From Plicaturopsis crispa FD-325 SS-3 (lineage: Eukaryota > Basidiomycota > Agaricomycetes > Amylocorticiales > Amylocorticiaceae): DNA of 64,000 nucleotides. Under the pieces are notes generated by a model. That model worked only from the letters and a program-made list of their open reading frames with translations. It had not been told where the DNA came from and made no database searches. The DNA lies in NCBI GenBank assembly GCA_000827205.1, contig KN832574.1, positions 341,436 to 405,435 of the forward strand, given 5' to 3'. A program made the position numbers and the translations under genes. Below, piece after piece: positions 1 through 7,434 of the stretch. Each line of letters opens with the position of its first letter. The first letter of the stretch is position 1.

Positions 1-894
1 ACGGGCGTTTTCTTTGTGCGAGGTTTTGCAGAAAGGGGGTAACACGAGCTCCATTCGCAAGGTGGGAGGACACCTATATACATTTGCGGGTGGCCTCGAC
101 CGCGCGCGTGCTCTTGCGCCGATCCGGGAGCGCCGTACAATCAATGTGTGGAGGAACGAGAAAGAAAACGGATGGAAGGTTATTAAGGAAGGTAAAACTC
201 GGTAGGTTATGGAAAACTTGGGCAGTGATGAGGACGGGACGGCAGCGTGTATGATTCAAAAGAGACAGGAAAAAGCGGATGGAGTACTCACTTCGGCGGC
301 GCGGCGACGTAGGACTTCGACGGTATGGACAGAGGATCATGTCGGCGGCGTGGGGGCTGTTTCTCTATTTGCGATTCGCGACTGCCCCGTCAGTGCGGAG
401 AAGCCGCCCAGCCTTGATCTTGTGAGCCGCGTTGTCGGTCCGAAGCTCTGCCCTTCTGCGAGATTTTTGGAAGTGGTTGTCGACAAGAAATGGGATGGTG
501 GGGGAAATATGTAGCTGCGAAAGAGTCCGTGTATCGGAACTGTGCGTCAGGAGCGGAGAGTACTGAGTAGGAGAGTGCGAGAAAGGGGAGGTGTATTCGT
601 GCAAGATGAGCAGCGGAACCAAATCCACGCGACTTTAATTTCCCTGAGCCATCGATCTGGATCCATAGATCGGGATACGCGCATGTGGCTGGGACATGGA
701 CTCGACCCTAAGTGCGCGTGTCTGGCGGCTTACGACGGGGAGCGTGTACGGTGTCGTCTCGTCTACGTTCAGAGCGTTTGGTGGCTACGCTTACAACTGT
801 GATTTTGTGAGTTTTAGGGCAAATACGGATTTTACAGGTCTAAGTACGAAAAGCCGATTCTGGGGATTTTTACGAGGAGGGCGGGACGCTCTAC
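1..894. other. Left edge, no gene assigned
   Basis: This stretch lies downstream of the truncated DUF6534 copy. Several short reading frames overlap on both strands, but none matches a family I know. A minus-strand open stretch around 365-480 is rich in Arg and Lys and has acceptor- and donor-like signals nearby, so it could be part of a gene that continues off the left edge. I cannot support a model. Confidence 0.3.
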
Positions 895-1301
895 GACACC
901 GGCGAGAAGGATGCATATGTCTGTGCCGAGTGGTGGTGCCAGCAGCAAAGAGGGCTGGCTGATATCCTTCACGGTCATCGTGTAGAGCGTGAATGACACA
1001 CACGCCGAATACGCGAGCTCGCATATCCTGCACGGGGATAAGAGTCCTGTCTACATAGAGTAGACGTCGAAGCTGAGACCTACCAGATAAGCCCGACCTA
1101 GGATGTTCGGCGTTAGGGATAGAATATGATAGTTGCACGAGATGAACTCACCAGTGACTTCATCCATTTCGCATCGTCGAATCTGTGGAAGTACGTGTAT
1201 GTCTGGCAGCTGACGACACCAAAGAGACATAGCGAGATGAGGATTCCGATCTCGGTTGCACCCAACGCCTTCTCCAGGTCCAGCGTGCTGCTAGCAGCCA
1301 T
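895..1301 (-). pseudogene. Truncated DUF6534 seven-helix membrane protein (copy 1)
   Basis: The ATG at 1299-1301 (minus) opens a protein very like copy 2: it begins MAASSTLDLEKALGATEIGI and continues through the first helix. The next two exons also fit the family: a short exon reading VGLIW, then ICELAYSACVSFTLYTMTVKD and on to LLAGVV. Similarity stops near position 895. Helices 3 to 7 and the C-terminal tail are missing, and the following sequence is unrelated. It therefore holds only about the first third of the roughly 325-residue family protein. What remains has no visible internal break and the promoter-side sequence resembles that of copy 2, so it is a recent partial copy lying in the opposite orientation. 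It may still be transcribed, but a working membrane protein is unlikely. Confidence 0.75.
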
Positions 1302-1868
1302 GGCTGACGAGGAAGAGGAAGAAGTGACCTGAAGTGACTTGCCAGAGCTGAGGGAATTTCGAGCTTGAGCACCGAGTTCTTAAGCAAAGCGCGTCTTGAT
1401 GGGCCTGGCGGCTTAGACTCGGATAGGCTTTGGTGTAGCCGGTATGTAATTGGGACAAGCTTCGGGTAGCCGGGGTGTATAGAGTCGCAAGGCGGTGTAT
1501 TGAGCTTCATGAAGCCCCGCGGAACTTCGAGTGATACATCGTACGTTCTTGCGCCCTAGAAGGTGCAAAGAACGACTCGGTTTTATGATGCAAATTTGGG
1601 ACTTGGAGACTCCGACGAACATCATTGCCTGAGCCGCCCTACGTGGCATGTGCCCGAACCTTTTCACTGTCATAAACATCGTTAGACATTTACTCAAACA
1701 GAAAACGCGCAAGCGCCGCATACAACGAAACCACGTACCCGTTCCGCCAACGACGGCCGAACGATGAGAGCAACCAAAAGTCAAGTGCCAGTACTAGTGC
1801 GCGCGGGGAACAGAAGAACCACGAGGATTCGGCGACGGGCCGCTGGGATTTCACAGGGTCATCTAATC

Positions 1869-1877
1869 TTATCTGAT
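1869..1877 (-). promoter_or_regulatory. Iron-type GATA factor site, distal copy
   Basis: The minus strand reads ATCAGATAA, a perfect match to ATCWGATAA, the consensus of fungal iron-repressor GATA factors (SreA/Fep1/Urbs1 type). It lies 95 bp upstream of the BolA2 start codon. Confidence 0.6.
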
Positions 1878-1899
1878 CCCAAGGTATCCTAAGCTGATC

Positions 1900-1908
1900 T
1901 TATCAGAT
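1900..1908 (-). promoter_or_regulatory. Iron-type GATA factor site, proximal copy
   Basis: The minus strand reads ATCTGATAA, a second perfect ATCWGATAA match in the same orientation. It starts 31 bp from the first, close to three helical turns, and lies 64 bp upstream of the BolA2 start codon. The shared flanking bases (ATCTTATC, then GATCCCA) suggest the pair arose by local duplication. Confidence 0.6.
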
Positions 1909-1972
1909 CCCACCCACCTCTTACAAACCCGCTTGCGTCGTCCACGTCTCCCCGTCTCTCACTCCCTCCACC

Positions 1973-2439
1973 ATGGCCGTCGACGTAAAAGCCCTCGAAT
2001 CCGCCATCCGCGGCGCAGTTTCCGTCAGCCACCTCGATATTGAGGACCAGTCGAATGGCTGCGGAGAGAATTACGCTATCATCATCGTCAGCCCTGTACG
2101 TTGTCGTATTCACACAGCTCGTACGATGCGGGGAGGGTACTCATATATCTCGCTTTGAAACAAAGGATTTTGAGGGAAAGACGACGCTGGCGAGACATAG
2201 ATGGGGTAGCCACTCGTTTCTAGCTTTTCAACAAGGCTACGAAAGTCTGACACGAAAATTTTCGCAGTGAACGATTTGCTGAAGAACGAGATCGCACAGA
2301 TGCATGCGTTCTCGCAGGTGCGTCGAACTCGTCTATTCCCGCTCGTCGTATGACCCCTAGACTGAAAGATTCGTAATGCTGGCAGAAAACGTTCACGCCG
2401 AAACAGTACGAGGCATACACCGCGAAGAACACCGAGTGA
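1973..2439 (+). CDS. BolA-like protein BolA2/Fra2
   Basis: BolA2 (Fra2 in yeast) pairs with monothiol glutaredoxins Grx3/4 to hold a bridging 2Fe-2S cluster and passes iron status to iron-responsive transcription factors in cytosol and nucleus. Four exons (1973-2095, 2166-2205, 2268-2317, 2386-2439) splice into 88 residues, the usual family length. It starts MAVDVKALESAIRGAV. The conserved cysteine is in the motif SNGCGENY (about residue 29), the RHRWVNDLL helix follows, and the conserved histidine ligand is in EIAQMHAFSQKTFTP. There is no mitochondrial presequence, which fits the cytosolic BolA2 type rather than BolA1 or BolA3. Two iron-type GATA sites lie 64-104 bp upstream. Confidence 0.95.
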
Positions 2440-5828: not shown

Positions 5829-7434
5829 ATGGCTGCCTGCGACACACTTGACCTGGAGAAAGCGTTGGGTGCAACCGAAATCGGCATACTCTTCTCACTG
5901 TGTCTGTTTGGTGTCGTCAGCTCACAGACGTACACATACTTCCGCAGATTCCTCGACGATGAGAGATGGATGAAGGCACTGGTACGTTTATCCGGTACAA
6001 TTGACCCATTTCATCTCTAACACCGAGAATGTGTTAGGTTGGGGCTATCTGGTGCGTGCATGCTTAGACGTTCCGACGCAGATTGGGCTCTTACATGTCC
6101 CTCCGCAGGATATGCGAACTCGTATATTCAGTGTGTGTGTCAATCACACTGTACACAATGACCGTGAAGGATTTCAGCCGGCCCTCATCGCTGATAACAC
6201 CACCACTCGGCACGGACATATGCATCCTCGTAGCCGGAACGATCTCTGCCCTCACCCAGGTGAATCCCCCACTTATCCTCTGTTTCTTCCCCGCCTATAA
6301 TCATGACACACACAGGCCTTCTTCGCGCGGCGTATCCGTATCCTCTCCGGCAGGCTCCCCCTCGCAATTATGTGCTGGGCGTTATGCGTTGCCCGTTTCG
6401 CGATATCATTCATGGCCACCGTCGAGAGCTTTGGGACGACTACGTGGATCGTGTACATTGCGGGTGGGAGGTGGACGAGCGTTTCGCTGCTTGGTGCGAG
6501 TGTGTTCACGGATCTCCTCATCGCTGGATCGCTTTGCTATTATCTGCTCCGGGAGAGGTCTCGCGCGATAACACCGTACGTGCACCTATACGCCTTGACA
6601 ATGCGAGGCTGACCGCATGAGAACAGTACGGTCGCGATACTGGATAAATTGCTCGTGTGGACAATCCGTGAGTGCTGGCTGCGACTCTACATTCGTCGCA
6701 TGCTGTGCTTGACATTTGTTTTCAGACAACGGCTTGCTTACGAGGTCAGTACACTAAACCGAATGTACTGCGCCAGAAGGTGTACTGAATTTCATCGACA
6801 GTGTAGCCTCGCTCACCATGCTGATAACCGTACGTACTCATCAAGGACTCGAGCTTTGGGCCACGTCTCATCCTCGTCTCTCTTCCAGTTTCTCGCTGCA
6901 CCAGGCAACTGTAAGCCCCCACCGAACTGACCTCGAGGCCTCTTCCTCATCTTGTCACGAGCAGTTACGTGGCTAGGCATCTTCATGTTCTTGCCCCGTC
7001 GTAAGTCCCGCGTCCTCAAAGTCAATTCCTCTACGCACCCTCCCGCTGATAATGTATCACGAGCAGTATTCTCGATGTCCCTCCTCGGCTCGTAGGCCCT
7101 TCTTCCCTTATCCCCTTTCGTGCTCTTGCATAACTATAGCAATGCGCAGACTGAATGCGCGAACGAGCCTCCGACGCGACCTCCAAGTGACTATTATGAG
7201 CAGCGTCCAGCACTACCCGCAGCTCCGTGTCGAATCGGCGGACGAGTTGCGATATCGGGCTGATGGAGGAGCTGGGAAGGTATGTGCTTCATAAGGGTAC
7301 TAGTATCGCGGACGCTGATACATGAAGAACCGTAGGATGTCTCTGCTGAACTGTGCCCGCCGGAGGGTACGGTGGTCACCCCGAGAACTGTTAGGATTCT
7401 GGGGCATGGCACCACGGGTGACACGAATAATTGA
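5829..7434 (+). CDS. DUF6534 seven-helix membrane protein (copy 2)
   Basis: DUF6534 proteins are polytopic membrane proteins expanded in mushroom-forming fungi; their role is unknown. Exon 1 (5829-5981, 51 codons) starts MAACDTLDLEKALGATEIGI and ends DDERWMKAL. A 14-nt second exon gives VGAIW, then come ICELVYSVCVSITLYTMTVKD, the helix-4 exon, and the short exons typical of the family (LDKLLVWTI, VASLTMLIT, VTWLGIFMFLPR, FSMSLLGS). The tail begins LNARTSLRRDLQ. After the last intron the frame ends GHGTTGDTNN at 7432-7434, without the acidic DxELGW ending of copies 4, 6 and 7. All splice phases checked are intact, so it looks functional. Its closest relative in the window is truncated copy 1. 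Confidence 0.85.

What the first reader, a model, noticed from the sequence alone, without database searches (positions are those of the whole stretch)
1869..1908. Two perfect iron-type GATA sites directly upstream of BolA2/Fra2
Two same-orientation ATCWGATAA sites (ATCAGATAA and ATCTGATAA) lie 31 bp apart within 105 bp of the start codon of a gene whose product senses iron with Grx3/4. ATCWGATAA is the published consensus of fungal SreA-type iron repressors. A perfect match is expected about once per 65 kb on two strands, so a pair this close is unlikely to be chance. The idea is that the iron-sensing adaptor is itself repressed by the iron GATA factor, forming a feedback loop. I know of no such report in basidiomycetes.
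Basis: partly seen in the sequence, partly recalled or inferred. Interest (0 to 1): 0.8.

Follow-up and report, generated by a model that had tools for sequence, protein, structure and literature searches.

The report
Iron-repressor sites before BolA2 gene
In this fungus, probably a mushroom-type one, the gene for an iron-sensing helper protein (BolA2/Fra2) carries two copies of a rare switch sequence that also sits before some iron-uptake and heme genes, which suggests that the iron sensor is itself controlled by iron.

Summary
Two ATCWGATAA sites, both on the minus strand, lie at 1869-1877 and 1900-1908, 65-104 bp before the ATG of a four-exon BolA2/Fra2 gene. Each is part of a longer repeat, GGGATCWGATAAGATYAG. 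The core ATCWGATAAGAT occurs 23 times in the 33.2-Mb genome (reversed control 1); GATCWGATAAGAT four times, two of them here. Of three loci with a same-orientation pair (gap 0-30), the other two are 20-bp tandem arrays.

Other core sites lie in the FET3/FTR1 divergent promoter (16 bp identical to a BolA2 site), between FAS1 and ferric-reductase genes, and before heme oxygenase and SFH5-like genes; 12 of 23 have no clear target. The genome encodes a two-finger GATA factor with a four-Cys linker, as in SreA/Fep1/Urbs1. BolA2 is thus probably a direct target of the iron GATA factor.

If Grx4-BolA2 strips the cluster from that factor, as in S. pombe, the loop is double-negative and sharpens the switch. 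Conservation and mRNA response were not testable. S. pombe fra2 mRNA does not respond to iron, so the wiring would differ.

The parts
1863..1880 (-). Distal extended site GGGATCAGATAAGATTAG, holding ATCAGATAA (1869-1877)
   Evidence: 93-110 bp upstream of the ATG
1894..1911 (-). Proximal extended site GGGATCTGATAAGATCAG, holding ATCTGATAA (1900-1908); ATCTGATAAGATCAGC is shared exactly with the FET3/FTR1 promoter site
   Evidence: 62-79 bp upstream of the ATG
1302..1972 (.). Intergenic region shared by the divergent membrane-protein-like gene and BolA2; no HGATAR motif in it besides the two sites
   Evidence: motif scan of the region
1973..2439 (+). BolA2/Fra2 gene, CDS join(1973..2095,2166..2205,2268..2317,2386..2439), 88 aa, Cys30 and His67 at the Fe-S ligand positions
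   Evidence: gene model; exon 4 start corrected by eye; Pfam BolA E 6.8e-17; PDB relatives
832..1301 (-). Divergent neighbour, membrane-protein-like; the predicted fragment has no Pfam match, a similar gene predicted at 6158-7095 matches DUF6534
   Evidence: gene models; Pfam; the sites are about 570-610 bp from its ATG

Best explanation
The two sites are operators of the fungal iron GATA factor (SreA/Fep1/Urbs1/Cir1 type) in the core promoter of BolA2. With enough iron the factor binds both sites, which lie about three helical turns apart and so on one face of the DNA, and holds BolA2 low together with FET3/FTR1, ferric reductase, heme oxygenase and an SFH5-like gene. In iron shortage the factor lets go and BolA2 rises. 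By the S. pombe mechanism more BolA2, with Grx4, would strip the [2Fe-2S] cluster from the factor, so the two inhibit each other and the switch becomes sharper. Shown here: the sites, their rarity, their company in the genome, the gene and the factor's presence. Inferred: binding, repression, the direction of the loop.
For: Core ATCWGATAAGAT: 23 places in 33.2 Mb against 1 for the reversed control; with a leading G, 4 places, 2 of them here. Of the 23, besides the 2 at BolA2, one each lies in the FET3/FTR1 divergent promoter (164 bp before the FTR1 ATG), 133 bp before heme oxygenase, between divergent FAS1 (157 bp) and ferric-reductase (208 bp) genes, and 95 bp before an SFH5-like gene: 6 of 23 in all. 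7 of 21 sites outside the window fall within 300 bp upstream of a predicted ATG against 8.5% of the sequence (binomial P 0.0013; two of the seven are before related GNAT genes and so not independent). A two-finger GATA factor with the linker CPGDGRCDGTGGTSACSGCPTFNN is encoded at C10:225869-226574. The two other BolA-family places found have no listed ATCWGATAA within 7.8 kb (C3) and about 110 kb (C1). Reported in vivo sites of U. maydis sid1 and S. pombe str1 and fio1-fip1 comply with ATCWGATAA (passages of PMC2610380). S. pombe Fra2 His66 and Cys29 are cluster ligands and the cluster passes from Fep1 to Grx4-Fra2 (PMC10704371 abstract).
Against: No expression, binding or cross-species data could be had. 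S. pombe fra2 mRNA is constitutive (passages of PMC4045890) and A. fumigatus bol3 rises after iron addition (passages of PMC11285713), so control of a BolA gene by an iron GATA factor is not general. 12 of the 23 core sites have no clear target gene within 300 bp, 4 of them around the FET3/FTR1 locus but not in its promoter; 5 more lie before genes without a known iron link. Which genes count as iron or heme linked was decided after seeing them. The probable Grx4 gene on C18 has no ATCWGATAAG on its whole contig. Seven GATA loci lie over the cut-off, and a second one (C6:1286496-1286873) also has two matches and was not read. About 670 bp before the likely start of the factor's own gene hold no ATCWGATAA.
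Confidence: 0.76

Rival explanations
1. The sites bind a different GATA factor (nitrogen, light or development) and BolA2 does not follow iron.
For: Seven GATA loci lie over the cut-off, one of them the Cys-rich factor; another (C6) also has two matches and was not read. All share the GATA core.
Against: The flanking ATC and the GAT extension mark the same 12-mer that sits before ferroxidase/permease, ferric reductase and heme oxygenase genes. The intergenic region has no other HGATAR motif.
Confidence: 0.13
2. The sites serve the divergent membrane-protein-like gene, not BolA2.
For: The intergenic region is shared.
Against: They are 65-104 bp from the BolA2 ATG but about 570-610 bp from the other; at the other iron/heme genes assigned here the distance is 95-268 bp.
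Confidence: 0.05
3. The pair is a chance or neutral duplication without function.
For: The two other close same-orientation pair loci in this genome are minisatellites, and 12 of 23 core sites have no clear target.
Against: No tandem repeat at the sites (whose one row lies at 1936-1958); 0.055 pairs expected genome-wide and 0 of 20,000 Markov copies with such a pair; 16 bp shared exactly with the FET3/FTR1 promoter site.
Confidence: 0.06

Closest known systems
SreA control of grxD in Aspergillus (PMC6762210, passages seen)
   Same: ATCWGATAA before the gene of a cytosolic iron-sensor component; repression by the iron GATA factor under iron sufficiency
   Different: There the target is the monothiol glutaredoxin, and Aspergillus appeared to lack a cytosolic Bol2 (its Bol3 was later reported dual-localized, PMC11285713, passages seen); here the target is BolA2, and the contig of the probable Grx4 gene has no ATCWGATAAG
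Fep1-Grx4-Fra2 of S. pombe (PMC4045890, passages; PMC10704371, abstract)
   Same: BolA2-type partner with Cys and His ligands; GATA-type iron repressor
   Different: fra2 mRNA is constitutive in S. pombe
Urbs1 of Ustilago maydis and Cir1/Grx4 of Cryptococcus neoformans (PMC10672361, PMC6282196, PMC2610380, passages seen)
   Same: Basidiomycete iron GATA factor; sid1 sites comply with ATCWGATAA; ferroxidase and permease under its control
   Different: BolA and Fra2 do not occur in the main text of PMC10672361; PMC6282196 says the role of the BolA-like protein remains to be examined

Membership tests
Iron GATA factor (SreA/Fep1/Urbs1/Cir1) regulon | Promoter carries ATCWGATAA | tested here: met
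   Two perfect sites; extended core shared with FET3/FTR1
Iron GATA factor (SreA/Fep1/Urbs1/Cir1) regulon | The genome encodes a GATA factor with fingers flanking a four-Cys region | tested here: met
   C10:225869-226574, both fingers and the linker read in L057; layout as in passages of PMC6282196 and PMC2610380; no tree was made
Iron GATA factor (SreA/Fep1/Urbs1/Cir1) regulon | Factor binds the promoter; mRNA falls with iron in a factor-dependent way | not testable with these tools
   No expression or binding data held
Iron GATA factor (SreA/Fep1/Urbs1/Cir1) regulon | Sites conserved in relatives | not testable with these tools
   The genome 'has no relatives here'; by their descriptions the genome collections hold prokaryotes, and metagenome scans were capped at 0
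BolA2/Fra2 | BolA domain, closer to BolA2 than to BolA1 or BolA3 among solved structures | tested here: met
   Pfam E 6.8e-17; PDB: a putative uncharacterized protein 5e-16, a BolA-like protein 3e-15, BolA2 entries from 1e-13, BolA-like 3 at 1e-8, BolA-like 1 at 8e-4
BolA2/Fra2 | Cys and His cluster ligands (S. pombe Cys29, His66) | tested here: met
   Cys30 and His67, same spacing of 37 (sequence; ligands from PMC10704371 abstract); not aligned directly to Fra2
BolA2/Fra2 | Cytosolic, partner of Grx3/4 | not tested
   The match to solved BolA proteins begins at residue 6, so no room for a long leader; no localisation or binding test

The most novel reading that the evidence does not exclude
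In this lineage the transcriptional feedback on the iron sensor has been placed on BolA2 rather than on Grx4: the iron repressor and its own de-clustering partner inhibit each other, giving a bistable or hysteretic iron switch whose set point is tuned by two operator sites.
Probability: 0.38. Interest if true: 0.68.

Novelty: new variant of a known kind. Interest (0 to 1): 0.52.

Why it matters
The Grx4-BolA2 pair tells the fungal iron repressor when iron is short (shown in S. pombe). If the repressor also sets the amount of BolA2, the sensor is inside its own regulon. That would change how the switch behaves (steeper, with memory), and it differs from S. pombe, where fra2 mRNA is flat. It also gives a 12-base core, ATCWGATAAGAT, for proposing iron targets in this fungus, among them a heme oxygenase, an SFH5-like protein and a group of GNAT acetyltransferases.

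Tried and rejected
The same-orientation pair near FTR1 first looked like a positive control for pairing. It proved to be a 20-bp tandem array about 0.8 kb past the FTR1 stop, and the C8 quadruplet likewise; neither is used as support. Plain ATCWGATAA is a weak predictor: of the 8 loci first listed (L001-L008, of 343 sites) none had a site within 300 bp upstream of a predicted ATG, nor an iron gene that I recognised; two of the eight had no predicted gene and other models were cut or poor, so this is a small control. A codon model alone gave almost no genes and was replaced by a spliced model that still errs: it missed part of BolA2 exon 4 and misplaced the FTR1 start. At the cut-off BolA2 itself was not called, so that count is conservative for the window. 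In one search a predicted frame opposite FET3 would start 7 bp from the L043:5004 site; I take it as spurious. The Pfam BolA search reads exon by exon and did not list the window gene, so further BolA genes may have been missed. PF13434 gave only partial matches; no siderophore gene is claimed. Two PF00462 hits taken for possible Grx4 are a Grx5-like protein (L058) and a CPYC dithiol Grx (L059). The first Pfam call on a BolA2 fragment found nothing; the full model did.

Full report
Observation. The window holds two ATCWGATAA sites and no more, both on the minus strand, at 1869-1877 and 1900-1908. The downstream gene was modelled by splicing rules and its exon 4 start corrected by eye: CDS join(1973..2095,2166..2205,2268..2317,2386..2439), 88 aa. 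It matches Pfam BolA at E 6.8e-17. Among solved structures the best hits are a putative uncharacterized protein, a BolA-like protein and then BolA2 entries; BolA3 and BolA1 entries score far lower. Cys30 and His67 stand at the spacing of the S. pombe Fra2 ligands Cys29 and His66 (PMC10704371, abstract and outline seen). The sites are 65-73 and 96-104 bp before the ATG. No other HGATAR motif lies in the 671-bp intergenic region.

Chance. Two sites in 64 kb is ordinary (18 of 100 shuffles). The genome has 343 sites against 134 for the reversed pattern. Same-orientation pairs with a gap of 0-30 bases occur at three loci (five overlapping matches), reversed control none. Two of these loci are 20-bp tandem arrays; the window pair is not. 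At the genome-wide rate 0.055 such pairs are expected, and 0 of 20,000 Markov copies of the region had one. The two sites agree over 18 bases as GGGATCWGATAAGATYAG. Their shared core ATCWGATAAGAT occurs 23 times (reversed control 1), and GATCWGATAAGAT four times, two of them here; the other two, on C14 (L053) and C17 (L055), have no clear target. ATCWGATAAG occurs 78 times against 36 for its control, so the further AT is enriched: 23 of 78 against 1 of 36.

Company of the core. The 21 core sites outside the window lie in seventeen 10-kb regions that I fetched (L016; L041-L056). Genes were predicted with a home-made finder and proteins checked with Pfam and PDB. Six of 23 sites lie in promoters of iron or heme genes: two at BolA2, and one each at FET3/FTR1 (divergent; 164 bp before the FTR1 ATG, with a plain ATCTGATAA 127 bp before FET3), heme oxygenase (133 bp; Pfam E 5e-29), FAS1/ferric reductase (divergent, 157 and 208 bp; Fasciclin E 7e-7, Ferric_reduct E 2.5e-28 on a hand-trimmed model) and an SFH5-like protein (95 bp; best PDB match SFH5, E 5.5e-27). 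Yeast Sfh5 is a hemoprotein (PMC7462610, start of abstract seen in a search listing). Five more lie within 300 bp of other genes: an MFS transporter (75 bp), three sites before GNAT acetyltransferases (258, 179, 251 bp) and an acidic protein (90 bp). The other 12 have no clear target: three lie past FTR1, one past the FET3 end, one in an apparent intron of an NmrA-like gene, one 445 bp before a gene without a Pfam match, and six elsewhere (L042, L044, L046, L050, L053, L055). What counts as iron or heme linked was decided after seeing the genes. Blind to identity, 7 of 21 sites outside the window fall within 300 bp upstream of a predicted ATG against 8.5% of 234 kb (L016 and L043 overlap and are counted twice in that background; one duplicate site was dropped), P 0.0013. 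With the BolA2 sites, which the finder missed at that cut-off, it is 7 of 23, P 0.0023. Two of the seven are before related GNAT genes, so they are not independent. As a small and imperfect control, the first 8 of 343 plain sites showed no such pattern.

The factor. Pfam GATA gives 10 matches, 9 over the cut-off, at seven loci. One pair at C10:225869-226574 reads finger, CPGDGRCDGTGGTSACSGCPTFNN, finger, the layout described for the SreA, Fep1, SRE and Urbs1 group (fingers flanking a region with four conserved cysteines; passages of PMC6282196 and PMC2610380). That this exact linker is their hallmark is recalled. A second locus with two matches (C6:1286496-1286873) was not read. No tree was built.

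Specificity. The two other BolA-family places found (C3:2256520-2256871 and C1:3373707-3373844) have no listed ATCWGATAA near: the nearest are 7.8 kb and about 110 kb away (whose list of the first 100 sites runs through C1-C3 into C4). The search was exon by exon and did not list the window gene, so it may have missed others. The monothiol glutaredoxin gene on C18, probably Grx4 because the C13 one looks Grx5-like, has no ATCWGATAAG on its contig; other forms of the site were not tested there and its upstream DNA could not be fetched.

Mechanism. In S. pombe the [2Fe-2S] cluster passes from Fep1 to Grx4-Fra2, which inactivates Fep1 in low iron (PMC10704371 abstract). If that holds here and the factor represses BolA2, the two inhibit each other: positive feedback, a sharper switch. 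The 31-bp spacing puts both sites on one face of the helix (inference). Cir1-type factors might also activate (recalled), so the sign of control is an inference.

Known work. SreA represses grxD, and ATCWGATAA is found in the grxD promoters of 20 Aspergillus species; those fungi appeared to lack cytosolic Bol2 (passages of PMC6762210). S. pombe fra2 mRNA does not respond to iron (passages of PMC4045890). A. fumigatus bol3 mRNA rises after short iron exposure (passages of PMC11285713). The U. maydis Grx4 paper has no BolA or Fra2 in its main text (term counts), and in C. neoformans the BolA-like protein remained to be examined (passages of PMC6282196). The C. albicans Grx3 paper reports Bol2/Fra2 as a Grx3 partner (passages of PMC7319344); in PMC10602907 BolA occurs once, in the reference list. 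In the passages seen none of these shows GATA control of a BolA gene. My searches of the open library listed no title or abstract start reporting a BolA2/Fra2 gene controlled by an iron GATA factor; subscription papers are mostly not held.

Limits. No expression or binding data exist here.

Noticed in passing
L051 3489 and 6426; L056 5003: Related GNAT acetyltransferase genes (C9, C27) carry the ATCWGATAAGAT core 179-258 bp before the predicted ATG; possible unrecognised iron-linked enzymes.
   Followed up: partly
L052 5000 and L047 5001: An SFH5-like gene has the core 95 bp before its ATG, and a heme oxygenase gene at 133 bp: a possible heme branch of the iron regulon.
   Followed up: partly
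L016 5022-8531: Core sites and plain GATA sites recur downstream of FTR1, between and beside similar open frames (possibly F-box-like, by eye); part of them sits in a 20-bp tandem array. No function assigned.
   Followed up: partly
L017 5105-5184: Four tandem copies of a 20-bp unit, each holding ATCAGATAA, on C8, next to the end of an open frame.
   Followed up: partly
window 832-1301 and about 6158-7095: Two similar membrane-protein genes (one a DUF6534 match) lie near BolA2, suggesting a local duplication.
   Followed up: no
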